Below, piece by piece: positions 13,101 to 56,962 of a DNA stretch of 64,000 nt (the stretch's first letter is position 1; each line of letters starts with the position of its first letter). The position numbers were made by a program, and so were the translations under genes. The notes under the pieces are model-generated. The model saw nothing but the letters and a program-made list of their open reading frames with translations. It was not told where the DNA came from and did not search any database. The DNA comes from Catellatospora sp. IY07-71 (GTDB taxonomy: Bacteria > Actinomycetota > Actinomycetes > Mycobacteriales > Micromonosporaceae), in assembly GCF_018326265.1 (NCBI RefSeq), contig NZ_AP023360.1, forward strand, positions 5,365,501 through 5,429,500. The letters run 5' to 3'.

Positions 13101-16100
13101 CAGCAGCCGGTCCAGGCCGTCGGGGTCCAGCCCGCCCGCGCGCATCACACCGAGCAGGCCCAGCAGCGCCCCCAGGTCCGCCGACGCGGCCCGCAGCCGG
13201 CCCAGCACCTCGCCGACCAGCACCCGCACCTCGGGCACGGCCCCGGTGAGCTGGTCGGCGGTGACGTCGAACGCCGCCCCGGCCGGGTCGGCGCGCACCA
13301 CCCACCGCTCCCGGTCGATGCCGAGCCCGCGCGCCTCGTGCAGCACCAGCTCCGCGTCCCCGGGGCGCCCGTCCAGCGGCACCTCGATCCGTGCCGACAT
13401 CCACCGCACCTCGGGGTCGCCGGCCGTGCCGGGCCCGCCGACCAGCCAGCCGTCGTGCACGCCCAGGTGCACGTCCACGATCACGCCGCGGACCAGCTGC
13501 GCCGACACGCCGCCGTCCGAGCGGCCGATGCGGCACAGCTCGACGGTCGCGCCGACCCCGACCAGCAGCCGGTCCAGGTCCAGGTCGATCACGGGCAGGT
13601 CCACCCCGACGTGCAGGGCGGTCACCGGCCCGGCGGCGAACTCGGCCGCCGCGGCGGCCTCCAGGCGGGCCGAGATGCCGTCGGCGACGTACGCGCCGAG
13701 CCCGTAGGCGAGCGTCTCGGCGTCGAGCGCGCCGAACACGGCCCGCACCGACAGTCCCGTGCGGCGCGTCTCGGCGGCGGCCGACGGCAGGTCGACCGGC
13801 CCGGCCGACCGCTCGATCAGCCCCGCGACCTGCATCCCGGCCGTCAGCTGGTGCGCGATCATGATCTCGGGCCAGCTCGGTGTCTCGGCCCGGCGCAGCC
13901 GCCCCAGCAGCCGCAGCGCGTCGCCGCCCAGCCCGGTCCGCAGGCTGTCCACGGCCACCGCCGACCAGGGCGTGCCGACCGTGATCACCTCGGTGACCGC
14001 CGTCAGCGTGGCGGCGGCCCGGATCGCGGCCGCGCCGCAGGCCCCGTACGCGACCACCGTCACCGGTGCCGTGCGCCCGGCCAGCACCGCGGCCAGGCGG
14101 GCCGCCTGCTCGCCGACGCCGCCGCGGTCCGGGCGGGCCATCGCGGCGGCCGTCGGGGTGGGCAGGCGCACGAACCAGGTGCCACCGCCGGTGGCCGGCA
14201 CGGTCGCCGGGTCGCCCGGGTCGGCGGCCGAGCGGTCGAACGCGCTGCCCGCGGGGCGGTCGGTGGTCCAGCTCGGCTCGCAACCCACGTGCAGCACGGC
14301 GGCGGGCAGGGACGCGGCGACCTCGCCGACGAGCAGGCCCGCGCCGCCGAAGGCGACTAGTTCGGCGTAGCCCAGTCCGGCCAGGACGGTGCCCGCGACC
14401 CCGTCGGGCAGCGCCGAGGGCATCCCGACCAGGCCGTCGGTGCCCGCCCAGCGGGCCGTCAGCAGCTCGAACCCGGTGGCCAGGGAGTCGCGGCCGACGA
14501 GCAGGTCGGCGACGTCGGGCAGGTTGTACGCCGCGTCGCGCAGCACCGCCACCACCGTCGCGGCATCCGGGGCCAGCCCCGCGGTGAGGTGCCCGATCGC
14601 CGGGGCGACCGCGGCCACCGGGGCGCACCCCGGATCCAGCCACACCGCCAGCCCCGGCGCCCTCGGCTCACCCGCGACGGGGCACCGGTACGGGCTGCGC
14701 GCGGTGCCGCTGCCGTACGGCGCGGTGATGCGCAGCCCCGACAGCAGCGCGGCCACCGGGCCGAGCGCGGCCCGGACCCGGCCGCAGTCGAGCACCAGGT
14801 CGGCCAGCCACGCCTCGACCGCCGCGCGCGGGTCGCCGCCCAGCAGCCCGCGCAGCGACAGGCGCGCGCCGGCGCCGTGCCAGCCCAGCAGCCCGACGAC
14901 CGCGTCCACGGCCGGGACCCGCAGCTCGGCCAGCAGCACGGCGAGCACCCGCTCGACGGCGTCCCAGTCCGGCGCCGGCAGGGTCAGCCGCCCCGCGTCG
15001 TCCAGGGTGGGCAGCGAGAACGGCACCCGCAGCCCCTGCCCGCGCTCCAGCACCACGGCCAGCCCGTCGGCGGCCAGCACGCCGCGCAGCCCGCGCCCGG
15101 CGGCCCAGCTCACCGTCGCGGCGATCCGCTCGGCCTCCAGGCTCAGCCCGGCCAGCCGCAGCCGGGCGGGCTGCCCGTCGGCGCGGGCCAGGCTCAGCGT
15201 GCCGTGCACCTGCCCGGCGAACACGACGGTGCGGGCGGCCAGGTCCAGCCGCAGCAGGCTCAGCCCGACCGTGGCGGCGGCCTCGAACTCGCCGAGCACC
15301 GGCGTGCGCACCGACCCGGCAAGGTCGGCCAGCAGCACGTCACCGGTGCGGCTCAGGCGCAGGTCGAGCCCGGCGGCCAGCCGCACCCGCCACGGGTCGG
15401 CCGCGGTGCCCGCGCCGGGCACGGCGGCGACGGCGGCTCCGGTGAGCAGGTGGCGCAGGTGGCCCAGCACGTCGGCGATCGCGGCCGGGGCGGCGGACAG
15501 GTCCCGCCAGTACCGCAGCACCTCGGCCAGCGGGTCGGCCAGCAGCCCGGTCACGTCCAGGCCGGTGACCCCGGCCGGCGGGTCCAGGCCCAGCAGCCGG
15601 TTGACCGCCGCGCCGAACGGGCCGAGTGCGGCGACGGCCGCGGCGATCGCGCCCTCGACGACGCTCTCGGCGGCCTCGACGGCGGCCTGCGGCGAGGACA
15701 GGTCCAGCAGCGGGTGGGTACGCCCACCGACGCGCACGTCCTGCAGGGTGAGCGTGAACGCGGGGCGGCCGGTGGCGTCCCGGCGCACCCCGGTGTGCAG
15801 GCTGCCGACGTGCGGGTCGGTGCCCGGCAGCAGCGCCGTGCCGCCCGCGTCGGCGCCGAATACCGCCTCCAGGCGTGCGTCGGGCAGCGCGGTCACCGCC
15901 CCGGTGCCGGTGTCGGCGCGCAGCACGTCGGCGGCCAGCCGCGCGCGTACCCCCGTCCGGGTCTGCAGGGCCAGCTCCACCCAGGGCACCAGGACCGGGT
16001 GCCCGCCGGTGCCGGGCTGCACCCGCACCCCGAGCGCGAACCGCGCGGGCCCGAACGCCTTGGTCACCGCCTGCCCGCCGCTGTCGACCGTGCCGTCGAT

Positions 16101-17024
16101 CAGCAGCGCGAGCTGGCCCAGCCAGGCCCGGCGCGCCGGTTCGGCGGCCAGCACCTGCTCCACCCAGCCGACCAGCGCGCTGATCCCGGCGGTGGGCAGC
16201 TCGGCCAGCGGCAGCGGCGGCAGGTCGTCGACCTGCCGCATCCCGGCCAGCCCGGCCACGGCCGCGAACGCCCGCAGCTCGGGGCGGCTGAGGTCCAGCG
16301 CCTCGGCCTGCGCCCGCACCAGACCCGCCACCAGCTCGAACACGTCGGAGCCGAGCTCGTCGAGGCTGTGCGCGTCCAGCGTGAACGTCCGGGGCGCCGG
16401 CGCGCCGGGCAGCTGCAGGTCGCGCAGCTCGACCGCGACCGACAGATCGTCCCCGGCGGCCGTGGGCACGCCGAGGGTCAGCGACAGGCCGCCCAGCGAC
16501 GCGGCCCCGGCCGCCGGGGCGGTGTCGGTGAACACCGCCTCGACCCCGACCGAGATCCGGCCGCCGGCCCGGCCGAGCAGCAGCCAGCCGGGCAGCGTGT
16601 CGTCGGCCGGGGCGTCGGCGTCGCCGCGGGCGAACCGGAAGATCGGCACGTGCACCCGGGTGGCGACCCGCGGCGTGCCGTCGCTGGTGTCGTGCTCCAG
16701 GCCCGCGCCGAGGTGGACGAACCCCTCGAGCTCCTCGACGACGGCGAAGACCGTCACGTGCGGGTCCGTCTCGGCGAACAGCGGCACCCAGGTCTGCCCG
16801 CCGCGCACCGCCCGGTCCGGCGGCCCGAGGACGCCGTCGACGAACCCGAGCAGCGCCCGGCGCTGGTCGTCGTCGGCGAGCAGGTCGCTCAGCCCGTGCG
16901 GGTTGCCGGACCCGCCGACCGGGTCGGTGAACCAGGACGCGTTCGCACCGCCGCCCGGTTCGACGATGCCCAGCGCCTTGGCCAGGTCGCCGAAGGAGCC
17001 GAGGGTGTCGGAGCTGACGGTCAC
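7146..17024 (-). CDS. Giant protein with DUF6603-like region, 3292 aa
   Basis: The start is the GTG at 17022-17024 (VTVSSDTLGSFGDLAKALGI), overlapping the upstream stop as GTGA. At 3292 residues it is the largest gene here. Residues 1-900 are repetitive beta/alpha segments (short Leu- and Gly-rich strands such as RISVGVEAVF). Around residues 910-1050 lies a segment resembling an alpha/beta hydrolase core without the nucleophile. Residues about 2100-2600 contain long Gly/aromatic beta strands (LYLERVGFGSVEVDGE, FFVFGALNGPIGG, FFLTGIGGGLGINRGL, WWKGPLSGQFVLTLGG) that I believe match the DUF6603 family. The C-terminal 700 residues are more soluble-looking. No signal peptide or hydrophobic membrane helix was found. 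The role is unknown; the repetitive strands suggest a scaffold or lipid/ligand-binding tube, but this is speculation. Confidence 0.85.
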   Translation of the reverse strand: MTVSSDTLGSFGDLAKALGIVEPGGGANASWFTDPVGGSGNPHGLSDLLADDDQRRALLGFVDGVLGPPDRAVRGGQTWVPLFAETDPHVTVFAVVEELEGFVHLGAGLEHDTSDGTPRVATRVHVPIFRFARGDADAPADDTLPGWLLLGRAGGRISVGVEAVFTDTAPAAGAASLGGLSLTLGVPTAAGDDLSVAVELRDLQLPGAPAPRTFTLDAHSLDELGSDVFELVAGLVRAQAEALDLSRPELRAFAAVAGLAGMRQVDDLPPLPLAELPTAGISALVGWVEQVLAAEPARRAWLGQLALLIDGTVDSGGQAVTKAFGPARFALGVRVQPGTGGHPVLVPWVELALQTRTGVRARLAADVLRADTGTGAVTALPDARLEAVFGADAGGTALLPGTDPHVGSLHTGVRRDATGRPAFTLTLQDVRVGGRTHPLLDLSSPQAAVEAAESVVEGAIAAAVAALGPFGAAVNRLLGLDPPAGVTGLDVTGLLADPLAEVLRYWRDLSAAPAAIADVLGHLRHLLTGAAVAAVPGAGTAADPWRVRLAAGLDLRLSRTGDVLLADLAGSVRTPVLGEFEAAATVGLSLLRLDLAARTVVFAGQVHGTLSLARADGQPARLRLAGLSLEAERIAATVSWAAGRGLRGVLAADGLAVVLERGQGLRVPFSLPTLDDAGRLTLPAPDWDAVERVLAVLLAELRVPAVDAVVGLLGWHGAGARLSLRGLLGGDPRAAVEAWLADLVLDCGRVRAALGPVAALLSGLRITAPYGSGTARSPYRCPVAGEPRAPGLAVWLDPGCAPVAAVAPAIGHLTAGLAPDAATVVAVLRDAAYNLPDVADLLVGRDSLATGFELLTARWAGTDGLVGMPSALPDGVAGTVLAGLGYAELVAFGGAGLLVGEVAASLPAAVLHVGCEPSWTTDRPAGSAFDRSAADPGDPATVPATGGGTWFVRLPTPTAAAMARPDRGGVGEQAARLAAVLAGRTAPVTVVAYGACGAAAIRAAATLTAVTEVITVGTPWSAVAVDSLRTGLGGDALRLLGRLRRAETPSWPEIMIAHQLTAGMQVAGLIERSAGPVDLPSAAAETRRTGLSVRAVFGALDAETLAYGLGAYVADGISARLEAAAAAEFAAGPVTALHVGVDLPVIDLDLDRLLVGVGATVELCRIGRSDGGVSAQLVRGVIVDVHLGVHDGWLVGGPGTAGDPEVRWMSARIEVPLDGRPGDAELVLHEARGLGIDRERWVVRADPAGAAFDVTADQLTGAVPEVRVLVGEVLGRLRAASADLGALLGLLGVMRAGGLDPDGLDRLLHDTAATVRAAVAAAPAELAAHLRELIPACTGTGAALAWTVGPATVGGDLAIGGLNIGWRLAEPGLPVIEATVAMTAAGATATASLGELDPHTGGLRLVARTAPAAAVEVQWGVPNAAARTVALLPGPDAAGLRDLAVVLVPAVTGQAVLTALRAAVSAEARPALDVALDAVGLLTGPDLYGGRDVVVPVGLVADPGGWLRQASAGWRTSPAASAVALLDALAPLVAPGRGSAAGWPIADGVTVSYRVESDRLRLLLDVALRTVSGSTVVTAHLAGGLLVGGDGLPQPVVSGSVDVDGRGLRLSVDPGVRLELLRPAPAAALTLYPDGPGLGQALSAIGETVLPPVLNALAGHRTDGTASVLRDVGRAVYDLGGALDLREGTAFTGARISAFAADPAAALTARLPQLITSAVASLAAALDPAHTLVTVTGPAGNVVTLGFGTGQPVHLVLDASGPLPAVELRADVAIVGVGHFVLERLRLSAAGVDVAVRLGPVVADVGPFALRPLLLVRAGSAAGGSRLAGLGLALDDAGTRSVQVRWALDASAPTLAAVTVSTGGESVGDAAQAALWLLAQAVSLAGGVAVQQLRTVLTPRAIACLRGVVFTDADGSTQIDPGLALDLLAPDALLARLKRLVWNAAAGPGLTLTIDGVVTVGITGSDHDGTRSLGVNVSLAAGRRFTIADGDTKVELEVDASWVQAEVAPGLTVYVLAGTSAATLEIVPAVSVSGLGLRFTKTSGPLLALGGVSLDAIAVHAYGEASPAGIGGGVQVELAGLAISPGGSGGGNSVANGILSDAGAAGQGSRPAFSPSLAIQQRPGHSLAVSLRAGPPPGPWWILVQRQLGPLYLERVGFGSVEVDGEVRSISLLFDGRVSIFGLTAAVDQLSLTWLGGDVLDLSHWAADLMGLAVSADLSGVSLSGGMLKTIGPPRDPLPPGATATGPVSYVGMLLGRFGVYGLSVFGGYTDDAGNPSFFVFGALNGPIGGPPAFFLTGIGGGLGINRGLRIPDDVARFAEFPFIQALDPAARPPADPMAELRRLTDYFPAQRGNFWFAAGISFNSFSLVDGIAVVAVSFGDGLEINLMGLARMALPRPQAPLVSIELGLLARFSTREGLFIIRAALTDNSWLLYPEVRLTGGFAFATWWKGPLSGQFVLTLGGYHPDFHRDGYPDVPRLGLMWRISDAIVIKGGVYFALTSEALMAGVDVEVSADFGWAWARIAFGAHGIVYFDPFWFEVMAYARISAGIEIDTWLGTISFSISLGARIKVWGPDFSGEATLEVGPCSFTVGFGSERRVEPRTLAWSEFVAKYLEDAGGGRARALSAITGQGSLPAATGGDRAAPTPDGSSERPFEVYAEFELTFVTTIPMSAIDVGLASGPVPVPVTRSDGAVVPLGLKPMKAADLSSVLAVRLEQRTAGGWAPLPAPLRQIGANLAAPAPTERGSSYTRDAYPIGAWGQPELSGLDAAPLPQGDVINAGNQVRLVAEAVSMHRGPEIDYYRVEASRRPLPLQAGGPTRATLLSDAASVTSPAVTGVAQALEAAQAQLFGAPAPTAAGLLPTGARSALARASYRGEVAAPPLFGTLADGLAAANGTDATAARVAPPAGPAVRIDRAPVVAGYLTAGAGAAARAAATTVADRTLPRRTAPTLDAARVRLATQLPVELHLAAAPAVTRDGTLAAVEVPRTVVPGTARSYRYGTSSLSRLVGGLTSAAPAAAHNELRRAAPAPAGQLLGSGDVVVLTFPDASTATGGGVLTVDGRARITVLNGGGDVLADVDAHGPVPVAATAALIAVQADGTTAVAEGLAGWHARSRICALGAHAALAAGCVLTSDGLPNGRGMRWSTAADLLDGAASSLTRFPGPVRTVAVVVEAAAADRLDGLALELTGARRARDGRGQTPPTVIHNGGQSVLLYPVEPAQGPVGVRVRAGGDWQVTGVLGGERDPAAVAAILVRQGLVAATARLLTPGGDGCRVTWTALDQQQEVPYDRR

Positions 17025-46923: not shown

Positions 46924-48473
46924 GCCTCGGACAGCACCTGCATGCCATCGCCGACGAGCAGCCGCCGCCGCCCGTACCCGCGGATCTGTTCCAGCGGGCG
47001 CGCCGCCGCGCCCGCACCCGGCGGGTGACCACCACGGGTCTCGCGCTGGTGGCCTTCGCGGGTCTCACTTCCGCGCTCGGCACCGGCGGGATCGCGCCGC
47101 ACCAGCCCGCGGCAGGCCCGGACCTGCTGCGCGACCTGTTCGGACCGGGCCTCGGCGGGCCGCTGGGCTGGCTGCTGCTGGCGGCGCTGCTCGGCCTGCT
47201 GGCCTGGCGCTGGCGCACCGCGCCCCGCGCGACCCTGCTCCGGCGGCTCGCGCTCACCGCGGTCGCCGGCGCGCTGCTGGTGATCGCCGCGCCTCCCGGC
47301 ACCGCGCTGTGGGGCGAGCCGCACGGGCAGCGGCCCGGCTTGCCCGACCGGTTCGCCGCGCCGTCGACCTGGACCTGGGTGGCCGAGGTACGCCAGTCCC
47401 CGCCCGGCCGGGTGGCGATGGTTCTCAGCGGCCCGGGCACGCACGGCGGGTTCGAGGAGGGCCGGGCCGTGTTGGTCGCCGCAGACGGCGACCGCTACCG
47501 GGTGCTCGACGTCTTCAGCGACCCGCTGGAGCAGCCCTGGACGTACGAGGTGGGCTTCGGCCGCACCCAGCTGCTGTCCCCGGACGGGCGCTACCTCACG
47601 GTGAATCAGGACGTCGTGGACCTCACCACCGGCGCAGCCCCGCCCGTCGGCCCTGCGCTGTCACCGGTGGCGTGGTCGGCGGACGGCAGCCGGATCGTGG
47701 TAGGCGTCCCCGATGTCGTCGACGGCGGTCAGCGTGCGTGGGAGGTGTGGGACATGCGGTCGCACGTCCTGGCGCGCACCATCACGCTGCCCGCCGGGGC
47801 GACCGCCGGCGGCGTGGCGCTCTCGCCCGACGGCGAGCGCGTCGCGGTGGAGGAGGGCGACCGCCTCGCGGTGTACCCGGTCGGCGGCGGCGAGCCTGTG
47901 CAGTGGCCGCTGACGGGCTGGCGGCTCGGCGACGGCGTGGCCTGGAGCACCGACGGACGCCTGCTGGCGCTGGTCCGGCGCGACGGCTGTCCCACCTGCT
48001 ACCACGAAGCAGGGCAGGCGCGCGGAATCCGGATGGTCGATCCGGACACCGGGCAGGTGGTCGCGGGCGGCGAGTTCGCTCCGCTGCCGGCGGACGTCGA
48101 GCTGGCGGTGCAGGGCTGGCGCGGGCCCGACCAGCTCGTCGCCCAGGTCGGCGGGGTGGTCGAGGTGTTCACGCGGGGCAGGGCGGCCCCGACCCGGCTG
48201 TTCGACCTGCCCGCGGGGGTCACCCACGTGGAGATCGCCACCGATGTGCTGCGCCTGCCGATGCGGCCGGCCGGACCGGCGACCTACGGGCCGCCGAACC
48301 TGTTCTTCTGGTACCTGCTCGGGACGGCCGCCGCACCGCTGGTGGCGCTGCTGTGCATGGGCCTGGTCATCCGGCGAGTCGTCCGGCGGCAGTCGGCGAC
48401 GACCCGCCCGGGCGGCCCGCCGACCGAGGGCACCGGCCCGCCCGCCGAGGGGGCCGGCACTCACGAGGCTTAG
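46920..48473 (+). CDS. Membrane WD40/PD40-like protein coupled to the sigma factor, 517 aa
   Basis: ATG at 46920 overlaps the sigma-factor stop. Residues 1-45 are cytoplasmic and basic (ADLFQRARRRARTRRVTTTG); hydrophobic helices follow at about 42-58, 78-98 and 108-124, then an extracytoplasmic beta-propeller (SPDGRYLTVNQDVVDL, VAWSADGSRIVVGVPD, VALSPDGERVAVEEGDRLAV, VAWSTDGRLLALVRR), and a last helix near 460-485 (FFWYLLGTAAAPLVALLCMG) with a basic tail. Topology and coupling suggest a membrane sensor that controls the sigma factor, although no zinc-type anti-sigma motif is present. A double hairpin follows the stop. Confidence 0.82.
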   Translation: MSLGQHLHAIADEQPPPPVPADLFQRARRRARTRRVTTTGLALVAFAGLTSALGTGGIAPHQPAAGPDLLRDLFGPGLGGPLGWLLLAALLGLLAWRWRTAPRATLLRRLALTAVAGALLVIAAPPGTALWGEPHGQRPGLPDRFAAPSTWTWVAEVRQSPPGRVAMVLSGPGTHGGFEEGRAVLVAADGDRYRVLDVFSDPLEQPWTYEVGFGRTQLLSPDGRYLTVNQDVVDLTTGAAPPVGPALSPVAWSADGSRIVVGVPDVVDGGQRAWEVWDMRSHVLARTITLPAGATAGGVALSPDGERVAVEEGDRLAVYPVGGGEPVQWPLTGWRLGDGVAWSTDGRLLALVRRDGCPTCYHEAGQARGIRMVDPDTGQVVAGGEFAPLPADVELAVQGWRGPDQLVAQVGGVVEVFTRGRAAPTRLFDLPAGVTHVEIATDVLRLPMRPAGPATYGPPNLFFWYLLGTAAAPLVALLCMGLVIRRVVRRQSATTRPGGPPTEGTGPPAEGAGTHEA

Positions 48474-48500
48474 ATTCCGTCTCGCGGATCCTGACCGGAA

Positions 48501-48548
48501 GCGGCGCGGCCGGACCGGTGGTAGACCACCGGACTTCGACCGCGCCGC
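48501..48548. terminator. Composite hairpin between convergent genes
   Basis: An inner stem CCGGTGG/CCACCGG (48515-48521, 48526-48532) is nested in an outer stem GCGGCGCGG/CCGCGCCGC (48501-48509, 48540-48548). It can serve the sigma operon and the convergent VOC gene. Confidence 0.65.
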
Positions 48549-48593
48549 ATACCGCAGACGCAACCGGGTCGGACATGATCCACCAGCCGGAAC

Positions 48594-49202
48594 CTAGGCG
48601 GACACGGCCTCCCACCGGAAGCCGTCGAGGTCGACGAAGCGTCCGGCGTCGCTGCCGACGGCGATGCGGTGCGAGCCGGAGCCCTCGGGTGACACGCCGG
48701 AGTCCTTGGCGGCGAACTTGCGGCTGTAGAGCGCCATCTTGATGGTCGAGGTGCCGAATTCGACATACTTGCTGCCGAAGCTCTTGGTCACCGGCAGGCC
48801 GCGGTCGGCGTAGAACTGCCTGGTCGCCTTGACGTCGCCGACGCCGAGCAGCAGCACGACATCGTTGACCTGGCGCGTCGCGGGGCCGGTGTTCTTCTTC
48901 TCCGCCGACGCGAGCTTCCAGACGGTGCCGAACGGGTCCTGGATGGTGCCGCCGTAGCCCCAGAAGCTCTTGCTCGCCGGCTTGAGCGTCGTCGCTCCGG
49001 CGGCCAGGGCTGTGGCGAAGAAGCTGTCCACGTCGCAGGGCTGGGGCACGACCAGCGAGATCGCGTAGCCGCGGAATCCGGCCGACGGTTCGTCACCGGC
49101 CCGCACGCGGATGCGCTCGCCCAGCCCGAAGGCCGCGGTGTAGAACGAGTCGGCGGCGGCCGGGTCGGTGACTTCGAGGATGAGGTGGTCGATGGAGGTC
49201 AT
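48594..49202 (-). CDS. Two-domain VOC (glyoxalase-like) protein, 202 aa
   Basis: Two vicinal-oxygen-chelate modules: residues 1-105 (MTSIDHLILEVTDPAAADSF, GYAISLVVPQPCDVDSFFAT, DPFGTVWKLAS) and 110-202 (VNDVVLLLGVGDVKATRQFY, KYVEFGTSTIKMALYSR, DLDGFRWEAVSA). Metal-ligand positions are only partly conserved, as in bleomycin-resistance/glyoxalase-like proteins with binding roles. ATG at 49200-49202 is preceded by GGAG. A perfect 7+7 palindrome 32 bases upstream is a probable operator. The reaction is not known. Confidence 0.85.
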   Translation of the reverse strand: MTSIDHLILEVTDPAAADSFYTAAFGLGERIRVRAGDEPSAGFRGYAISLVVPQPCDVDSFFATALAAGATTLKPASKSFWGYGGTIQDPFGTVWKLASAEKKNTGPATRQVNDVVLLLGVGDVKATRQFYADRGLPVTKSFGSKYVEFGTSTIKMALYSRKFAAKDSGVSPEGSGSHRIAVGSDAGRFVDLDGFRWEAVSA

Positions 49203-49233
49203 GGCGTGCTCCTTCGGGAGGCTGTCGTGGATC

Positions 49234-49251
49234 GCTGTGTCTGAACACAGC
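49234..49251. promoter_or_regulatory. Palindromic operator candidate before the VOC gene
   Basis: GCTGTGT-CTGA-ACACAGC is a perfect 7+7 inverted repeat with a four-base centre, 32 bases upstream of the start codon, where a repressor or activator would overlap the promoter. Confidence 0.5.
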
Positions 49252-49456
49252 TTCACCTCCCGGGCCGCCCGCCCACATCCGTGGTGACCACGGAAGCCGC
49301 CACGGAGCGGGCGTACGGATACACGCGCGAGCCATGATCCGCGAGACAGGCCACAGGGTCGGCCGCATCGGTAGGAGCCGTATTTCAGTACGCCGTTGCC
49401 TGCCCGCTCACCGGCGATGTACAGGCGGCCGTCAATGCCGTACGGCGACGCTGCCG

Positions 49457-50218
49457 TCACGTACGCAGATAGGAAGCGCCGTTGAGGTCGACGATCGTGC
49501 CGGACGCCCACTCGGCCAGCGGTGAGGCAAGCCAGAGCACCGCCGCCGCGATCTCCTCGGGCCGGGCCACCCGCCCGAACGGGCTCTGCGCCCTGATCGC
49601 GGCGCCGCCGGGGGAGTCGAGATGCTCGCTGGTCATGTCGGTCTCGACGAAACCGGGCGCCACCGCCGCGACGGCGATCCCCAGCGGGCCGAGCGCGACC
49701 GCGAGCGACTGAGTGAGCGAGTTGAGCCCGGCCTTGCTCGCGCCGTACGCCGCGTGAGTCGGCTCGCCGCGGAAGGCGCCCCGCGACGACACATTGATGA
49801 TCCGGCCGCCCCTGTCGCGCATGTGCCGCGCGGCGCACCAGATCGCGTTGGCCGCACCGACGAGGTTGGTGTCCAGTGTGAGCCGCCACTGGCGTTGCCA
49901 CTCCTCGTAGGAGGTTTCGAGGACGGGGTGATGCGTGTAGACGCCGGCGTTGTTGACCAGCACGTCCAACCCGCCAAGCGCTTCTGCGGCACCGTCCACC
50001 ATGGCCCGGACGGCGTCCGGGTCGGCCATGTCGCCCTGAACGACGACGTGTCCGTCACCGGGCAGCGAGTCGCGCAGCTGCTCGGCCGGCCGCACCGACG
50101 CGCGGCAATGGATCGCCACGCGATCACCGCCGTCGGCGAACGCCTGCGCCACGGCACGTCCGATTCCGCGGGAGGCTCCGGTCACCAGGATCGCGCGTCC
50201 AGACATACTGATCATCAT
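49457..50218 (-). CDS. SDR family oxidoreductase (FabG-like), 253 aa
   Basis: A classical short-chain dehydrogenase: cofactor loop TGASRGIG (about residues 13-20), NNAG (about 93-96), catalytic Ser in INVSSRGAF and YxxxK in YGASKAG (about 160-166), PG motif APGFVETDM and C-terminus GTIVDLNGASYLRT. Three ATGs (50218, 50215, 50206) are possible; none has a strong ribosome binding site. Length is standard for FabG-like NADP-dependent 3-ketoacyl or sugar dehydrogenases, but the substrate is unknown. It is not in an operon and the next plus-strand operon starts 211 bases away in the opposite direction. Confidence 0.9.
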   Translation of the reverse strand: MMISMSGRAILVTGASRGIGRAVAQAFADGGDRVAIHCRASVRPAEQLRDSLPGDGHVVVQGDMADPDAVRAMVDGAAEALGGLDVLVNNAGVYTHHPVLETSYEEWQRQWRLTLDTNLVGAANAIWCAARHMRDRGGRIINVSSRGAFRGEPTHAAYGASKAGLNSLTQSLAVALGPLGIAVAAVAPGFVETDMTSEHLDSPGGAAIRAQSPFGRVARPEEIAAAVLWLASPLAEWASGTIVDLNGASYLRT

Positions 50219-50429
50219 GCCGTAAGGCGTCGCGCTCCCGCTCAGGGGGTCACCGGCCGGCCATCGCCCCGATCATCCGGTGCGACGGGGCCGTCGCGCC
50301 AGCGATCCCGCAGCAGTCGACTCGAGCCCGCTACCGCGCCACGCTCCTTCGAGAACGTTTGTCCGATCACGACTGCTGTGCTTTCCTATAAGGCTTTGCG
50401 CTTTCGTCTCAGCGAGATCCGGGGAAGAC

Positions 50430-51455
50430 ATGGTCATTCGACACCTGCTGGGCGCTGTCACGTATTCGGCGGTAAGGGCGTCGTTGAACGGGCCGGCACG
50501 TCCGGCCGTCATCGACCTCAACAGCTCGCCCCTGCGCCGGTTGGGCGTGTGCGGGCTGTGGAGCCTGCGCAGGAGCTTCGGGGCCGAGCGCGTGGCCATG
50601 GCGCTCGGCGAGGCGGCGCTGCCGGGCTGGACCATGGTCAGAAGCCCGATCTGGCACGGCGTCTCGTCACTCGGCCGGTTCGCGTATGTCGGCCCAGACC
50701 GTGCGGTGCTGGTCGAGTCGGTCCTCGACGAGGAGAACAGCAGTGCTGTCGCCAGGCTCGACGACGCGGCAGGCGAACTCGCCGCGGTGCTGGGGCGCAG
50801 CTCCGCAACGGTGGGTGCCGTGGCCTGCGTGTCAGGCGACGTCGAACCACGTGACCTTCCCGGCCCCTCCGGCCGGCTGGTGACGGTGACCGGGACCACC
50901 TGGCTGTGCGGCCTGCTCCGGAGCCGCTACGTGGTGGACGGACCGGAACGCGCGGTCGGGCCGCCCGCCATCGCGTCCGACGGCCCGCGGCGTGCGGCGC
51001 AGCGTGCCCTCTACGTCGAGCTGGTCGACAAGCTGCCCGGCTGGTGGACGGTTCCGGAACTGGTGCTGGACGACGGGGGCGGCGAGCCGTTCGACCTGGT
51101 CGCAGTCGGCTGCACGGGGGTCCTCGTCGTGGACGTCTCCCAGGACCTGACCGACATCCGGGTGGCCCGGCTGGCGCGCTGGACCAGGCGGCTGCGTACC
51201 GTGCTGCCGGTCAGCGACGTCATCCCGGTCGCGATCTCGTCCGGCCCTGACGTGTACGGGCCGCAGACCGACGACGCCGGCTACCAGATCGCCTGGATCG
51301 ACCCCGACCGGCTGGCGGCGTTCGCCGCCGGCCTGAGTTGCCGCGGGGTGGACGTGCAGCAGCTCGCGCTGCTGAACCAGCCGACGCCGTTCTGGTCCCG
51401 GCGGGTCCGGCGCGACGCGTCCGGTGTCACCGTGCAGATCGGCTCGCCGGCATGA
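50430..51455 (+). CDS. Tandem degenerate NERD-like domain protein, 341 aa; first gene of putative defence operon
   Basis: ATG at 50430 follows GGGGAAG. I read two nuclease-related (NERD) folds in tandem: residues about 40-125 (SFGAERVAMALGEAALPGWT, GRFAYVGPDRAVLVES) and about 190-290 (AAQRALYVELVDKLPGWWTV, PFDLVAVGCTGVLVVDVSQD). The core strand pattern of NERD (acidic residue, then D...GP.GV.vv(D/E)xK) is visible, but the catalytic Lys is absent in both copies (VLVES, VVDVS), so both may be inactive or modified. No signal peptide is seen. The stop overlaps the next ATG as ATGA. NERD domains occur in plasmid-encoded and defence proteins, often next to kinases and helicases, as here. The call is by motif reading only. 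Confidence 0.75.
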   Translation: MVIRHLLGAVTYSAVRASLNGPARPAVIDLNSSPLRRLGVCGLWSLRRSFGAERVAMALGEAALPGWTMVRSPIWHGVSSLGRFAYVGPDRAVLVESVLDEENSSAVARLDDAAGELAAVLGRSSATVGAVACVSGDVEPRDLPGPSGRLVTVTGTTWLCGLLRSRYVVDGPERAVGPPAIASDGPRRAAQRALYVELVDKLPGWWTVPELVLDDGGGEPFDLVAVGCTGVLVVDVSQDLTDIRVARLARWTRRLRTVLPVSDVIPVAISSGPDVYGPQTDDAGYQIAWIDPDRLAAFAAGLSCRGVDVQQLALLNQPTPFWSRRVRRDASGVTVQIGSPA

Positions 51456-52807
51456 TCGACCCGCTCGACCAGCTCACCGCGGCCTCGCGCAACTTCGCGT
51501 TCCTCGGTCCGGTGGCGCCGCGCATGGGCGCCGACGCGGCCGCCGCCGAGTATTACGCGTTCTCCGATCCGGACGCGGCGATGGGCCGGGCACGGCGCTT
51601 CGCCGAGGAGTTCACCCGCTCGCTCAGCGGTCCCTTCACCGGCAAGGAGCCCAGCCTGCACGAACGGGTGCGCAGGCTCGTCGCCGGCGGCGTGGTGCCC
51701 GGCAGGCTGGTGCCGCTGCTGGACACCGTCCGCCGGCACGGCAACGAGGCGGTGCACCAGGGCTCCGGTGACGTCGCCAAGGCGCTCGTCTCGGTCGAGC
51801 ACTGCTTCCGGCTGGCGGTGTGGTGGCACGAGCACACGCAGGGCAGCCCGCCCGGGCACGCGTACGTTCCTCCGTCGGCGGCCCTCGGCCGCTCCCTGGA
51901 GCTGCGCCGCCTGGTCGAGGCGTTCGAGAAGGCGGTGGACGCTCCGCCGCCGCGGATCGTGATCGCGCCGCGCGCCGCGCCCGCCGAGGACTGGGCGGGC
52001 GGTGTGGAGGTGACCGGCGGGCCCCACCGCTACGTGGTGTACGGTCCAGCCGAGGTCAGCGAGGCACCCGACCGGTCGTGGGTCTTCCGTGACGCGGCGG
52101 CGCGGCGGCACGACGCGTCCAACGAGCCGGTCCGGCTGCGTGGTGTGCGGGGTGCCGGGGCGGCCTATGAGCAGCTGGTGCGAGGCCTGGACCGGCAGTC
52201 GGCGCTGCTGGCCGAGCTCGGCGGGCGGCCGGGGCTGCCGCGGCCGGTCTGGCGCGGCGCCGACGGCGACGCCGAGCTGCTCGTCGCCGCCCCGCCGGCC
52301 GGGGTGAGCTGGCAGGAGCGGTTCGGGCTCGGCCCGCAGCCGCTGGATCCGCTGGTGGTGCCGATGGCGCTCAGTGCGGCGATCGACCTGGCGAACACCC
52401 TCACGGCCCTGCACCAGGCCGGAGCGACCCACCTCGCGCTCTCCGGCCGGTCCGTGCTCGTCGGCAGGGACCGGCGCGGGGCGCTGCGCGACCTGGGCCA
52501 CGCGGGGCTCGCGGCGCTGCCGCCCGCCGCCGACGGCTACCCGGCTCCCGAGCAGCGGGCGAGTGCCTACGGACGACCAGGCCCGGCGTCCGACGTGTAC
52601 CAGGTCGCCGCGCTGCTGCACCACACGTGCGCCGGAGCCGCGCCGGGAGGCGGGCCGGTGGTGCTCTCCCCGCACGCCCCGGCCGGCCTGGCCGAGCTGC
52701 TGGCCGCGGCCCTCGACCCGGAACCCCGCCGCCGTCCCGACCTGCGCACGTTCGCCGGACGGCTACGGCGAGTCCGCACGCATCCCCACCCGGAGGCGAC
52801 CCTGTGA
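51452..52807 (+). CDS. DUF4145-like domain fused to a protein pseudokinase, 451 aa
   Basis: ATG at 51452 overlaps the previous stop (ATGA). Residues about 40-140 match the DUF4145 helical domain found at the N-terminus of type I restriction HsdR subunits (EPSLHERVRRLVAGGVVPGR, RRHGNEAVHQGSGDVAKALV, VEHCFRLAVWW). Residues about 200-440 look like a serine/threonine kinase C-lobe: HQAGATHLALSGRSVLVG takes the place of HRDLKPxNIL (catalytic Asp, Lys and Asn all lost), DLG at about 346 replaces DFG, while PAPEQ (about 366) and the SDVYQVAALLHH helix are kept. A pseudokinase or binding module is likely. Sandwiched between NERD-like and helicase genes, it resembles the kinase-helicase pairing of Mokosh-type defence. 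Confidence 0.78.
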   Translation: MIDPLDQLTAASRNFAFLGPVAPRMGADAAAAEYYAFSDPDAAMGRARRFAEEFTRSLSGPFTGKEPSLHERVRRLVAGGVVPGRLVPLLDTVRRHGNEAVHQGSGDVAKALVSVEHCFRLAVWWHEHTQGSPPGHAYVPPSAALGRSLELRRLVEAFEKAVDAPPPRIVIAPRAAPAEDWAGGVEVTGGPHRYVVYGPAEVSEAPDRSWVFRDAAARRHDASNEPVRLRGVRGAGAAYEQLVRGLDRQSALLAELGGRPGLPRPVWRGADGDAELLVAAPPAGVSWQERFGLGPQPLDPLVVPMALSAAIDLANTLTALHQAGATHLALSGRSVLVGRDRRGALRDLGHAGLAALPPAADGYPAPEQRASAYGRPGPASDVYQVAALLHHTCAGAAPGGGPVVLSPHAPAGLAELLAAALDPEPRRRPDLRTFAGRLRRVRTHPHPEATL

Positions 52808-55746
52808 ACCCATCGCCCGTACACCTGCCCGGCGCCGTCGCCCTGCTGCCCTCGCCCGGGTTCCTGGACGACATCGGCAACCAGTTCAGCCCGCTGCTGC
52901 ACGAACTCAACCTGCTCGCAGGGCAGGGTGTGCTCCCGGCCCGGCTCGAAGAGGACGACCGCGGCTGGCGGCTGTTCCTGCATACCTCGACCCGGGTGCT
53001 GCGGCTGTATCCGAGCCGGGGCGGTGACGCGTACACCATCGCCCGTGCCCATCCGCGTGGCTTCCGGGACGAAGCGGCGCTGCTGAAGCAGGCCCTGCTG
53101 CTGACCAGCCGGCACGGCTTCCGTGCCTTCCCGGACATGGGCGAGTTCAACCGCAGCGTCGCGGGCAGCCGGGTGATCCGGTCGAACCACGACGACACCC
53201 TGTGGGATGCCTGGAACGCCCAGCTCGACGCGCCGGCGCCGCACGCGTCACCCCACGAGCACCGCCTGGCCCTGATGGACCTGGTGGTGCAGGCGGCGCG
53301 CGACATCGAGCTGGGGCGGGTGGCCGAGCGCGCGCCGCACCAGTACGCCTCCCGGGGTGACGCCAAGGAGGAGCGGCATTCCGCGCGCGGCGTCTACCGG
53401 TTCCGCATGCTGCGGCGGCCCGAGCTGGCCGTGAACACGGTGGTGTGCCTCGGCGACGCGCCGGACCTGCGCGGTGTCGTCATCCGGGTCGACGGCAACG
53501 AGGTCACGGTGCGTTTCGAACCGGGCGCGGACTTCCGGCGCATCGGGGCGCAGGGCACACTCATGGTCCTGCCCAGCGACCGGGTCTTCCGCGCCCAGCT
53601 TAAGGCGATCGATACGCTCCGCCGCGGCGGCGGCCGCAATCCGCAGCTACTCGACGCGCTGCTCGACGGCGCCGTCCGCCCGTACGCGCCGGACACGTCC
53701 GTGCAGCCCGCGGGCAGGCTCGACGGCGACCAGCGCGAGGCACTCGGGCGGTCGGCCGCGGTGCCCGACGTCCTCTGCGTGCTGGGCCCGCCCGGCACGG
53801 GCAAGACCACCACCATCGTCGAGATGGTCCGGGCCGCCGTCCAGCGCGGAGAGCGCGTCCTGGTCACCTCGCACACCCACCGGGCCGTCGACAACGTGCT
53901 CGAGAACCTGCCCGCCGACATGAACGTCGTCCGGTTCGGCAACGAGGACCGGATGTCCGCCCGGGTGAAGGCCCTGTCCGCGGAGAGCCAGGCCGAGACC
54001 GCCCGCAGGGAGATCCTCGCCGACACCGCCGCGCTCGACCAGCTCGCCGCCCAGCACAGCCACCGGCCGCTGGCCGAGCAGCACCTCACCCACCTCGACG
54101 ATCAGCTGCGGCGGCTGACGGCCGCCGAACAGGAGACACGACGGCTCGACGCCGCGCTGCTCGACGTGGTCGCGCCGGCCGGTTCCCCGCTGCGCCGGGA
54201 ACTCGACCAGGCCGCCGCGGCGATCACCGGGCACCGCGAGCAACTCGCTCAGCTGCAGCGGGCGGTCGACGCCGTCGGCCGCCGGATCGCGTTCGCCCGG
54301 CGGATCGCCGCCGACCTGCCATTCCTGGCCTTCCTCAGCAACTGGTTCATCGCCTGGCAGAGCGGCCACGCCGCAGCCGCCGGGCAGTCGCAGGCACGTA
54401 TACGGGTGGAGCTGGCCGCCGCCGAGGCCGCCCACCGATCCGTACTGCAGCAGGCCGAAACCCTGGCCGCGAGCACCCCCGCCGCCCGCGGGCTGCTCGA
54501 AGCGCGGGCGGCGGCCCAGCGGGCGACGGCCGCGGCCCGCGCGCAGGCCGAAGCCTCGTCGGGCGCGCTCGGCCTGCTGCTCGGGCCGCTGTTCGCGCCG
54601 CCGGCGCCGCAGCCGACGGTGGAGGATTGGCGCCGCTACCACGGCGACTGCCGGTCCGGGTTCGACCTGATCGAGCGGCGGCACGCGCTGTTGCAGGAGT
54701 GGCGGGCCCGCTGCGGCGACCTGACCACCGAACTGCAGAACGAGATCGCCCGCTACGCCGACGTCCTCGGCGCGACCTGCATCGGCACGGACACCTCCGC
54801 CCGGATCGCGGAGATGGAGTTCGACCTGACGATCGTCGACGAGGCGGGCCAGATCTCCCTGCCCAACCTGCTCGTGCCGCTGATCCGCTCGCAGCGGATG
54901 GTGCTCGTCGGCGACCACCGGCAGCTGCCGCCCTACCTCGACGACGAGCTGCGCCGCTGGGGCGACGATGTCGCCCGTCACCAGGGCTTGACCGCTCAGG
55001 AGATCGGCCAGGTTCGGGACCTGCTGGTCAAGAGCGGTTTCGAGACGCTGTTCCCCCGGCTCGGGCCCGCCAACGCCGTCTGGCTGCGCACGCAGCGCCG
55101 CATGCCCGCCGAGATCGCGCAGTTCGTGTCCCGCGCCTTCTACGACGGCAGGCTGGCCACCGAACACCCCGGCGCCCGCCCTGCCGACCTGTTCAGGAGC
55201 CCGTTCGCCATGGTGAACACCGCCGACCGGCCGCTGGGCGAACGCGGCGAGACGGCGCTGAACGGGCCGCGCGGCGGCTTTCGCAACGAACTGGAAGCAA
55301 AGATCATCGCGGACCTGCTGGTCCACCATCAGGAGCAGTATCCGACCTGGGCGGTGATCGTGCCGTTCAACGCCCAGCGGGAGCTGGTCCTCAAGGAGCT
55401 GAACGTGCGGCAGGGCCTGCCGCTCGACGCGGCGGAGCACGTCGGCACCGTCGACTCGTTCCAGGGCGGCGAGCGCGATCTGATCATCTTCGGTTTCACC
55501 CGGAGCAACGCGGCGGGCCGGATCGGGTTCCTGCGCGAGCTGCGCCGCTTCAACGTGGCCGTCACGCGGGCACGCCGGCTGCTCGTCCTCGTCGGGGACC
55601 TGGACACGCTGACCGCCGCGGAGCACCGGGCGTTCCGCGACGTCATGCGGGACATGCGTACGCACCTGACGGGCAGCGGCCACGTACGCGGTTCCATCGA
55701 GATCGAGAAGGACCTGCGCGAGCGCGGAATGGGGCAGCCATGGTGA
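52804..55746 (+). CDS. COG1112-type superfamily 1 helicase (Upf1/Dna2-like), 980 aa
   Basis: GTG at 52804 overlaps the previous stop (GTGA). After an N-terminal 300-residue region (YSFIARAHPRG-like beta/alpha segments) the AAA_11 core starts: Walker A GPPGTGKTTT (328-335), motif Ia VTSHTHRAVDNVLENLP. A long helical insertion, about residues 390-640, is rich in Ala/Gln/Arg coiled-coil-like heptads. Walker B is IVDEAGQIS (about 679-683), motif III VGDHRQLPP, motif IV FNAQRELVLKEL, motif V GTVDSFQGGERDLIIFGFTR and motif VI FNVAVTRARRLL; all needed ATPase and translocation motifs are intact. It probably unwinds or moves along DNA or RNA. COG1112 helicases are central in several phage-defence systems. 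The next gene overlaps it by seven bases. Confidence 0.9.
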   Translation: MNPSPVHLPGAVALLPSPGFLDDIGNQFSPLLHELNLLAGQGVLPARLEEDDRGWRLFLHTSTRVLRLYPSRGGDAYTIARAHPRGFRDEAALLKQALLLTSRHGFRAFPDMGEFNRSVAGSRVIRSNHDDTLWDAWNAQLDAPAPHASPHEHRLALMDLVVQAARDIELGRVAERAPHQYASRGDAKEERHSARGVYRFRMLRRPELAVNTVVCLGDAPDLRGVVIRVDGNEVTVRFEPGADFRRIGAQGTLMVLPSDRVFRAQLKAIDTLRRGGGRNPQLLDALLDGAVRPYAPDTSVQPAGRLDGDQREALGRSAAVPDVLCVLGPPGTGKTTTIVEMVRAAVQRGERVLVTSHTHRAVDNVLENLPADMNVVRFGNEDRMSARVKALSAESQAETARREILADTAALDQLAAQHSHRPLAEQHLTHLDDQLRRLTAAEQETRRLDAALLDVVAPAGSPLRRELDQAAAAITGHREQLAQLQRAVDAVGRRIAFARRIAADLPFLAFLSNWFIAWQSGHAAAAGQSQARIRVELAAAEAAHRSVLQQAETLAASTPAARGLLEARAAAQRATAAARAQAEASSGALGLLLGPLFAPPAPQPTVEDWRRYHGDCRSGFDLIERRHALLQEWRARCGDLTTELQNEIARYADVLGATCIGTDTSARIAEMEFDLTIVDEAGQISLPNLLVPLIRSQRMVLVGDHRQLPPYLDDELRRWGDDVARHQGLTAQEIGQVRDLLVKSGFETLFPRLGPANAVWLRTQRRMPAEIAQFVSRAFYDGRLATEHPGARPADLFRSPFAMVNTADRPLGERGETALNGPRGGFRNELEAKIIADLLVHHQEQYPTWAVIVPFNAQRELVLKELNVRQGLPLDAAEHVGTVDSFQGGERDLIIFGFTRSNAAGRIGFLRELRRFNVAVTRARRLLVLVGDLDTLTAAEHRAFRDVMRDMRTHLTGSGHVRGSIEIEKDLRERGMGQPW

Positions 55747-56945
55747 AGCGGGTCATCTATCCGGCGACGCGAGCGGTCGAGCACGCGATCGCCCAGCCCG
55801 GCGTGCGGCCGGTCAGGTTCTTCCCGGTGCTGTGGCCCCTGTGGGAGGTCCAGACCACGGCCGAGATCCACGACGAGCAGGCCTTCGAGATCATCGACCA
55901 TTTCCTGCTGCGGGCGGTCGACGAGGCCGACCTGCACGACCCGGCCCGGCTCGCCGGTTTCCTCGGCCTGCCGCCCGGCATCGTCGACAGGTGCCTGCGC
56001 TTCCTCACCATGATCGGGCACGTCACGATCGACGGCGGCGGCGTCCGGCTCACGCCGCTGGGCAGGCAGTCGCTGCAGGCAGGCGTCCGGCTGGTCCCCA
56101 AGACCAGCAGCCAGACGCTGTACTTCGAGCGGCAGACCGGCCGGCCGCTGCCGCGCCGGTACTACGACGCCAAGGTGCCGTTCCTGGACCGGCCCGAGGT
56201 CGCGCCCGAGCAACTGGCCGACGGCACCCGGTTCCTGTCGGTCTTCACCGTCGCACGGTTCCAGCCCGAGTGGCTCACCTGGCTGGAGAGCAACCCGCAG
56301 CGCGCCGATTACAACCTGCCCGGCCTGCTGCGCGACCTGCGGCAGGACGGCCAGCGCGAGGCATACCTGCCCAGTTATCTGATCGAGACCGCCGACCGCC
56401 GCATCCTGGCCTACACCGCCTGCTCGGGTGAGCGCGACGACTTCCTCGAGCAGGTGTACCACAAGACCACGATCGGCAGCTTGATCGAGGCGCAGGGCGT
56501 GCGGGAGCCCGCCGAGACATGGAACCGGTGGCTGTCCAACTCCGCCGCGTTCGGCCGGGGCAAACTGCGGCACCGCGGTGACCTGTGGCAGGTGACGCTG
56601 CCGGCGGACGCGTTCGGCGACCACCCGAAGGTGTCGCTGTCGCGCCTGGGCGGATACCAGTTCCGGGAGAACCACTTCATCCAGGTGTGGTGCGACGACG
56701 CCGCGACCCGCAAGCAGGCGCTGGCGCAGCGGTGCCGCGGCATCGCCCGGCAGGCCGACGTCTCGTCGGTGACCGAGCTGGTACGCCGAGTCCAGGCGCT
56801 CGCCGACACCCTTGAGGTGCCGCACATCGACCTCGCACAACTGCGCCGCGAGGCCGAACGGGCCAACGACCACGCCTGCCTGCACAGCCTGCGCCTTCTC
56901 GAAACCGGAGCGGCGGGCCGGGCCACAGGTCAGCGTGCCCGGTAA
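55740..56945 (+). CDS. Winged-helix-like hypothetical protein, 401 aa; last gene of putative defence operon
   Basis: ATG at 55740 overlaps the helicase stop by seven bases, so it is co-translated. Residues about 35-120 look like a winged helix: AFEIIDHFLLRAVDEADLHD, PARLAGFLGLPPGIVDRCLR, FLTMIGHVTIDGGGVRLTPLG. The remaining 280 residues alternate helices and strands (RYYDAKVPFLDRPE, YLPSYLIETADRRILAYTAC, WLSNSAAFGRGKLRHRGDLW) with conserved-looking Trp and Arg but no nuclease HKD, HNH or PD-(D/E)xK motif that I can identify. It may recognise nucleic acid and guide the helicase, or regulate the operon. No family name is given. An 18-bp hairpin follows. Confidence 0.78.
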   Translation: MVKRVIYPATRAVEHAIAQPGVRPVRFFPVLWPLWEVQTTAEIHDEQAFEIIDHFLLRAVDEADLHDPARLAGFLGLPPGIVDRCLRFLTMIGHVTIDGGGVRLTPLGRQSLQAGVRLVPKTSSQTLYFERQTGRPLPRRYYDAKVPFLDRPEVAPEQLADGTRFLSVFTVARFQPEWLTWLESNPQRADYNLPGLLRDLRQDGQREAYLPSYLIETADRRILAYTACSGERDDFLEQVYHKTTIGSLIEAQGVREPAETWNRWLSNSAAFGRGKLRHRGDLWQVTLPADAFGDHPKVSLSRLGGYQFRENHFIQVWCDDAATRKQALAQRCRGIARQADVSSVTELVRRVQALADTLEVPHIDLAQLRREAERANDHACLHSLRLLETGAAGRATGQRAR

Positions 56946-56962
56946 CGGCCGATTCGACGCAG

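What the first reader, a model, noticed from the sequence alone, without database searches (positions are those of the whole stretch)
50430..56945. Four-gene operon of NERD-like, pseudokinase, COG1112 helicase and winged-helix proteins: candidate new defence system
The four reading frames overlap at every junction (ATGA, GTGA, 7-base overlap), so they form one translational unit. Seen: a tandem NERD-like fold, an HsdR-type DUF4145 domain with a kinase lobe, a full Upf1/Dna2-type helicase and a winged-helix-like protein. Established, as I recall it: Mokosh-type systems pair a COG1112 helicase that has a kinase domain with a PLD nuclease, and PglW of BREX type 2 joins kinase and NERD. Inferred: this locus is a relative or new type in which kinase and nuclease domains are separate genes and degenerate, and no PLD nuclease is present. 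It stands next to unrelated enzyme genes, typical of accessory insertions.
Basis: partly seen in the sequence, partly recalled or inferred. Interest (0 to 1): 0.82.

Follow-up and report, generated by a model that had tools for sequence, protein, structure and literature searches.

The report
Mokosh-like defence operon with swappable effectors
A four-gene bacterial operon looks like an undescribed relative of the Mokosh anti-virus systems, in which an apparently dead kinase carries interchangeable killer domains next to a nucleic-acid helicase, but nobody has yet tested that it protects cells.

Summary
The four overlapping genes are real (A 50430-51455, B 51452-52807, C 52804-55746, D 55740-56945). 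C is closest to the Mokosh helicase MkoA (PADLOC 1.4e-110). D matches only the N-terminal part of MkoB; the PLD-bearing part of MkoB has no counterpart in D. B ends in a kinase fold that lacks catalytic residues. A is a tandem NERD-like protein without the catalytic lysine, found at 2 of 5 sister loci: an accessory. The conserved unit is B-C-D, contiguous at 23 of 27 loci with full-length-type D, with mostly unrelated neighbours. B's N-terminus is exchanged: LmuA/Avs2-type nuclease (10), DUF4145/HEPN (5, the window's type), tentative Cap4-like (3), hydrophobic segment (3), TIR (1), truncated (1). In a congener the flanks match, but the 8.5-kb block with the operon is replaced. Best reading: a Mokosh-related defence family with a helicase core and a pseudokinase that carries exchangeable effectors, as LmuA does in Lamassu. 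Defence activity is inferred. For the window itself it is doubtful that the DUF4145 domain is catalytic.

The parts
50430..51455 (+). Gene A, 341 aa: tandem NERD-like protein, catalytic lysine missing; accessory
   Evidence: hhalign to NERD in both halves; alignment with L014 relative, DVS in place of (D/E)xK in the C-terminal half of both
51006..51218 (+). NERD-like stretch of the C-terminal half of A (residues 193-263)
51452..52807 (+). Gene B, 451 aa: N-terminal DUF4145/HEPN domain plus C-terminal pseudokinase; proposed effector carrier
51545..51760 (+). DUF4145 domain of B (residues 32-103); the position that is exchanged in other loci
   Evidence: Pfam PF13643 4.6e-7; HsdR-like; motif GN.A.H in 5 of 5
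52364..52780 (+). Kinase-fold part of B (residues 305-443), HRD aspartate replaced
   Evidence: MkoA kinase part 2.2e-6; THLAL in place of HRD
52804..55746 (+). Gene C, 980 aa: MkoA-type SF1 (Upf1/Dna2-like) helicase, GTG start
   Evidence: motifs
53719..54141 (+). C: first helicase domain match (AAA_11, residues 306-446) with Walker A
55039..55599 (+). C: second helicase domain match (AAA_12, residues 746-932)
55740..56945 (+). Gene D, 401 aa: MkoB-like N-terminal part, own C-terminal part of unknown fold
55773..56396 (+). MkoB-like part of D (residues 12-219)
   Evidence: N-part comparison 96, 30 shuffles at most 0.5
48458..56960 (.). Variable block: replaced by other genes in congener G002 between flanks of 93-94% DNA identity
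56963..57010 (.). Inverted repeat just after D, at the right end of the block; terminator-like by eye, not scanned
   Evidence: read directly; a similar repeat stands at the G002 side

Best explanation
The operon is a Mokosh-related defence system of an undescribed type. The MkoA-type helicase C and the MkoB-type protein D form the recognition core that engages foreign nucleic acid (inferred). B is the effector carrier: its pseudokinase half docks to the C-D core (inferred from its conservation), and its N-terminal domain is exchangeable. At other loci that position holds an LmuA/Avs2-type PD-(D/E)xK nuclease, a TIR domain, a tentative Cap4-like nuclease or a hydrophobic, possibly membrane, segment (shown by sequence). 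In the window it is a DUF4145/HEPN domain, predicted to cut or bind RNA, with A as an optional accessory. Engagement of foreign nucleic acid would release the effector and stop the infection, probably by harming the cell (inferred). Compared with Mokosh type I, the kinase is a separate gene and inactive, the MkoB-like protein has no PLD nuclease, and the killing domain sits on the kinase-fold protein.
For: C best family MkoA 1.4e-110, D to MkoB 6-129 at 6e-16, B's kinase part to MkoA 2.2e-6. D N-part to canonical MkoB N-part hhalign 96 against at most 0.5 in 30 shuffles; D C-part 0.1, whereas two MkoB groups match each other there at 95.5. B-C-D contiguous at 23 of 27 loci. B's N-terminus: LmuA 2.1e-47 and 2.7e-31, Avs2 1.4e-10 and 1.4e-9 in the two REase-type proteins scanned of ten, D and QxK invariant in 10 of 10; TIR_2 6.5e-31 in L091; DUF4145 over cut-off in 4 of 5. 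Least number of domain changes on the helicase tree is 4; TIR row nested with Frankia REase rows, 100/99. Patchy presence: 13 of 151 relatives, 0 of 10 congeners. Variable block. LmuA is described as carrying variable N-terminal effectors with a docking C-terminus (PMC10586767, passages).
Against: No activity is shown. No structure could be predicted. The window's own effector is doubtful: in DUF4145 the residue before the motif Asn is Gly, with an Arg three positions earlier in 4 of 5, and A lacks the lysine. Cap4 matches are below Pfam's cut-off and PADLOC gave no Cap4 match for L096 at 1e-3. PDB profile searches with the REase and DUF4145 domains found nothing credible. The three hydrophobic-type B proteins keep the HRD aspartate. 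Domain exchange is only as frequent as the minimum for five classes. No background rate was measured for defence genes among neighbours. No match on plasmids, phages or viral contigs. A catalytically degenerate short C-D pair is common in genus g29 and sat in the same neighbourhood in the two read.
Confidence: 0.6

Rival explanations
1. An ordinary Mokosh type I system that has only been split into separate genes and works by the same kinase and transcript-destroying route.
For: Homology of C, D and B's kinase part to MkoA/MkoB. NERD is listed for Mokosh type I (PMC10952713, table passage).
Against: Kinase aspartate missing in 20 of 23 B proteins (L092 was misread by the script and reads HRA); no PLD-like counterpart in D; effector domains on B not found in the canonical MkoA read here, L074-L076; the 26 helicases form one clade against three MkoA, 100/100.
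Confidence: 0.13
2. The window's copy is a non-killing or decaying derivative: DUF4145 and NERD-like parts bind rather than cut, and the operon acts by blocking or regulating, or no longer acts.
For: Canonical HEPN Arg not in place, NERD lysine lost, a degenerate C-D pair exists in genus g29.
Against: All four genes are intact with overlapping junctions, helicase motifs intact, DUF4145 type retained at five loci of which B is 36-45% identical to the window over that domain.
Confidence: 0.2
3. A conflict system aimed mainly at plasmids or conjugative elements rather than phages, as described for Lamassu and Wadjet.
For: LmuA-type effector; Lamassu acts on plasmids (PMC10586767, passages).
Against: Nothing in the sequence tells the target; Mokosh is described as acting on viral transcripts (PMC11291487, passage).
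Confidence: 0.25
4. A housekeeping DNA-repair or RNA-quality operon with a Upf1/Dna2-like helicase.
For: Closest solved relatives of C are SMUBP-2, DNA2 and UPF1; a short C-D pair has a shared neighbourhood in two genomes of genus g29.
Against: Patchy presence, differing neighbours, variable block, immune effector domains on B.
Confidence: 0.06

Closest known systems
Mokosh type I (MkoA + MkoB)
   Same: Helicase of MkoA type, kinase fold, MkoB-like N-terminal part, adjacent genes
   Different: Kinase fold is a separate gene and lacks catalytic residues; no PLD-like part in D; exchangeable N-terminal domains on B
Lamassu (LmuA effector protein)
   Same: A carrier protein with exchangeable N-terminal effectors; the REase-type B N-terminus is homologous to LmuA (2.1e-47)
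   Different: No LmuB SMC-like protein among A-D; ATPase is an SF1 helicase
Avs2 N-terminal effector
   Same: REase-type B N-terminus matches the Avs2 N-terminus (1.4e-10)
   Different: No STAND ATPase or sensor repeat in A-D
PglW of BREX type 2
   Same: NERD-like and pseudokinase parts occur together (PMC12839542, passages)
   Different: NERD-like A is a separate, optional gene; no active kinase in A-D; PADLOC gave no PglX or PglZ match for A-D
HsdR N-terminal (DUF4145) region of type I restriction enzymes
   Same: B residues 12-160 match the HsdR model's first 156 positions
   Different: No HsdR nuclease or motor part in B

Membership tests
Mokosh type I | COG1112/MkoA-type helicase | tested here: met
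   PADLOC MkoA 1.4e-110 for the window's C; about 1e-100 for C of L088 and L169
Mokosh type I | Kinase fused to the helicase in one protein (definition recalled; seen in L075 by Pfam) | tested here: not met
   Kinase fold is in B, helicase in C; fused in L075
Mokosh type I | Active kinase (recalled as STK) | tested here: not met
   HRD Asp replaced in 20 of 23 B, window included; canonical L074-L076 have HRD. Canonical-like L071-L073 read HRN, so this feature varies within MkoA too
Mokosh type I | MkoB with a PLD-like nuclease | tested here: not met
   D C-part does not match MkoB C-part (0.1); no PLD hit in 5 of 5 D scanned. Caution: Pfam PLD passes its cut-off in only 1 of 5 canonical MkoB scanned (L071), and a simple HKD motif was also absent from 4 of 5 of them
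Mokosh type I | Anti-phage activity | not testable with these tools
   needs an experiment
Lamassu | LmuB SMC-like ATPase | tested here: not met
   no SMC/LmuB match among A-D
Lamassu | Effector protein with exchangeable N-terminal domain | tested here: met
   B N-termini across 23 loci; meets the logic, not membership
BREX type 2 (Pgl) | PglZ, PglX and single-chain PglW | tested here: inconclusive
HEPN RNases (DUF4145) | DUF4145 domain | tested here: met
   over cut-off in window, L014, L015, L165; not in L085
HEPN RNases (DUF4145) | R-x4-6-H catalytic motif | tested here: inconclusive
   GN.A.H invariant in 5 of 5, Arg three positions before the Gly in 4 of 5, not at the usual place

The most novel reading that the evidence does not exclude
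A separate actinobacterial immune family in which a dead kinase fold has become the adaptor that plugs interchangeable killer domains (nuclease, TIR, HEPN-type, membrane) into a Upf1-like helicase sensor, so that Mokosh-type sensing is combined with Lamassu-type effector exchange.
Probability: 0.55. Interest if true: 0.85.

Novelty: new variant of a known kind. Interest (0 to 1): 0.74.

Why it matters
If right, a pseudokinase serves as a general effector socket in bacterial immunity, and helicase-based sensing of the Mokosh kind, whose trigger is little understood, can be studied with easily read outputs (NAD+ loss for the TIR type, DNA cutting for the REase type). It would connect Mokosh and Lamassu through shared parts, and adds a family that the PADLOC-DB 2023 models name only piecewise.

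Tried and rejected
Considered and rejected: A as the nuclease effector (lysine missing; A was found only at the window and L014 among the 170 loci held). Canonical Mokosh membership (defining features not met). A fixed housekeeping locus. Spread on known plasmids or phages: D gave no match in the plasmid and phage collections, A and D none in viral contigs. The HKD motif as proof that D lacks a PLD: dropped, because 4 of 5 canonical MkoB also lack it; the profile comparison replaces it.

Led nowhere: the first gene-calling script failed on a syntax error (done). PDB profile searches with D, the REase domain and the DUF4145 domain gave nothing credible. A's two halves do not match each other (1.0). 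Literature searches for a description listed none; preprints are not held and two lists were cut (40 of 42; 12 of 37).

Rows left out: 39 matches were listed; 19 short ones (all genus g29) and one C-terminal fragment are not among the 27 loci; of the short ones only L024 and L025 were read. The NERD profile used 13 of 14 matches. The tree used only a C-terminal piece of the interrupted helicase of L021 and the called piece of L092. Flank comparison covered 18 loci (131 genes); L165-L170 were not compared; 110 of the 131 were scanned with PADLOC.
Full report
WHAT IS THERE. The window holds four intact + strand genes: A 50430-51455, B 51452-52807, C 52804-55746, D 55740-56945. The junctions read ATGA, GTGA and ATGGTGA. 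The window is G000:C1:5365501-5429500 of an 8.6-Mb single-contig genome. Its family is most likely Micromonosporaceae: contigs of same-family genomes have the lengths of named Micromonosporaceae records, e.g. G065 and Phytohabitans suffuscus NZ_AP022871.1.

THE PROTEINS. C is a Upf1-like SF1 helicase: AAA_11 and AAA_12, best PADLOC family MkoA at 1.4e-110, PDB relatives SMUBP-2, DNA2, NAM7/UPF1, motifs intact. D matches MkoB positions 6-129 of 610 (6e-16). Against two canonical MkoB (L075, L076) D's residues 12-219 align (95). Split in two, D's N-part matches MkoB's N-part at 96 (30 column shuffles at most 0.5) and the other MkoB group at 84; D's C-part does not match (0.1 and 0.7), whereas the C-parts of the two MkoB groups match each other at 95.5. 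Pfam finds PLD over its cut-off in 1 of 5 canonical MkoB scanned (L071) and in 0 of 5 D. B has an N-terminal DUF4145 domain like the HsdR N-terminus and a C-terminal kinase fold (PknB 3.6e-16 by a 12-member profile). The window reads THLAL where HRD should be, and an Arg where the VAIK Lys is expected (position judged by eye from the alignment); DxG and APE remain. A is NERD-like in both halves (80 and 93; 60 shuffles of the whole at most 3.6; reversed 16); the halves do not match each other. In the C-terminal half the lysine of D..(D/E)xK is Ser in both members.

RELATED LOCI. A search with D matched 13 of 151 relatives and 0 of the 10 other genomes of the genus. A scan of named genomes gave 14 loci from Micromonosporaceae, Streptosporangiaceae and Frankiaceae. 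A family search with the D profile matched 37 of 300 genomes, with 39 matches: 19 full-length type, 19 short (all genus g29), one fragment. A phylum search of 396 genomes gave, besides the window, two weak matches, in loci with an apparently active kinase gene, a helicase and a D-like protein (L077, L078). Without duplicates and short forms there are 27 distinct loci with full-length-type D; B-C-D is contiguous at 23. Exceptions: C-D only in L016, L022, L167; a D remnant in L097. Of the 23, L021 has a gene inserted within C, L092 lacks a called N-terminal part of C, L166 lacks B's N-terminal part. A occurs at the window and L014 only, among 170 loci held: 2 of 5 DUF4145-type loci. Whole-genome searches with A matched 2 of 151 and 2 of 300, the second marginal at 9.9e-4 with a stop inside.

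THE EXCHANGED DOMAIN. B's N-terminus at the 23 loci: PD-(D/E)xK nuclease 10, DUF4145 5, tentative Cap4-like 3, hydrophobic segment 3, TIR 1, truncated 1. The nuclease type has D and QxK invariant in 10 of 10; the two of ten scanned match LmuA (L089 2.1e-47, L088 2.7e-31) and Avs2 (1.4e-10, 1.4e-9); one has a sub-threshold Mrr_cat hit (0.0063). L091 has TIR_2 at 6.5e-31. DUF4145 is over cut-off in 4 of 5; L085 has no Pfam hit but aligns with the others over its length. Cap4 matches (0.0028, 0.066, 0.013) are below cut-off, and PADLOC gave none for L096. The hydrophobic type has 19-residue hydropathy peaks of 2.2-2.3 against at most 1.56 in the other B proteins. The kinase Asp is missing in 20 of 23 and kept in the three hydrophobic-type proteins (the script misread L092, which reads HRA). 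On the helicase tree the 26 rows of the family form one clade against three canonical MkoA (100/100), the DUF4145 loci plus L016 one clade (99/100), and TIR groups with two Frankia REase rows (100/99). The least number of class changes over 22 labelled rows is 4, the minimum for five classes: exchange is real but not frequent.

MOBILITY AND NEIGHBOURS. In congener G002 the DNA matches the window at 94% up to 48457 and at 93% from 56961 on, 16 bases after D's stop. Between, the window has 8.5 kb (a glyoxalase-type gene by Pfam; an SDR gene by eye; A-D) and G002 a different 10-kb block, by eye transporters and metabolic genes. Orthologues of the SDR gene (81-84%) lie in six congeners; in the three compared, nothing else of the window region stands beside them. 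Among 18 loci (131 flank genes) four neighbours are shared by L018/L087; L093/L094 and L089/L090 share one each; L088 and L095 share a vWA and a PP2C-type gene in different arrangement; other similarities are single weaker family matches, one of them between the window's SDR and a gene of L088 at 65%. Pfam shows a UvrD helicase and a PIN_8 protein before L014's A and a recombinase after L087's D. No background rate was measured, so this is suggestive only.

MECHANISM. Shown: homologies, gene order, domain exchange, loss of kinase residues. Inferred: C-D senses foreign nucleic acid, B's pseudokinase docks to it, the N-terminal domain executes. This is the logic described for Lamassu, where LmuA has variable N-terminal effectors and a C-terminal part that possibly docks (PMC10586767, passages read). 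Weak point for the window: DUF4145 is a HEPN family whose motif is mostly conserved (80%) (PMC3710099, passages read), but here the residue before the motif Asn is Gly, with an Arg three positions earlier in 4 of 5; RNase activity is uncertain, and A looks inactive.

KNOWN OR NEW. The definition of Mokosh type I (kinase-helicase MkoA, PLD MkoB) is recalled from Millman et al. 2022, not read; a review table lists PLD for types I and II and NERD for type I (PMC10952713, passage), and another paper says that Mokosh degrades viral transcripts (PMC11291487, passages). PMC12278908, PMC7159879 and PMC12839542 were read in passages only and describe no such trio there. The operon fails the fusion, active-kinase and PLD tests, so it is filed as a Mokosh-related new variant, not as Mokosh. 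The searches listed no description of a kinase-fold/helicase/MkoB-like trio with exchanged effectors; preprints and most subscription papers are not in that library.

Noticed in passing
L024:6847-9218, L025:8117-10524 (genus g29): A short C-D pair without B: helicase of 532/558 aa without a Walker A motif or second helicase domain, D cut to about 250 aa, next to TetR and MMPL genes in both. 19 short-D matches, all in this genus, look like an exapted, catalytically dead relative.
   Followed up: partly
L077:3820-14385 and L078:1995-12560: Operon of an active-looking separate kinase, helicase of 1137/1128 aa, D-like 482-aa protein with a wHTH-PRTase-associated domain, and two further large genes: possibly another split Mokosh relative.
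   Followed up: partly
L071-L073: Canonical-like MkoA/MkoB pairs whose MkoA kinase part reads HRN instead of HRD; MkoB of L071 is 1932 aa with PLD and a GHKL ATPase domain.
   Followed up: no
L075:10364-14518: A NERD-bearing 1384-aa protein stands beside a canonical Mokosh pair, PglW-like by eye.
   Followed up: no
L088:11200-14692 and L095:1828-5533: vWA/TerY, PP2C and STK_OB-type genes next to B-C-D in two Dactylosporangium loci, in different orientation.
   Followed up: partly
L021:10079-11782: A 567-aa gene on the opposite strand splits the helicase gene of this locus in two.
   Followed up: no
window 7146-17024 (-): A giant 3292-aa protein with a DUF6603 domain.
   Followed up: no
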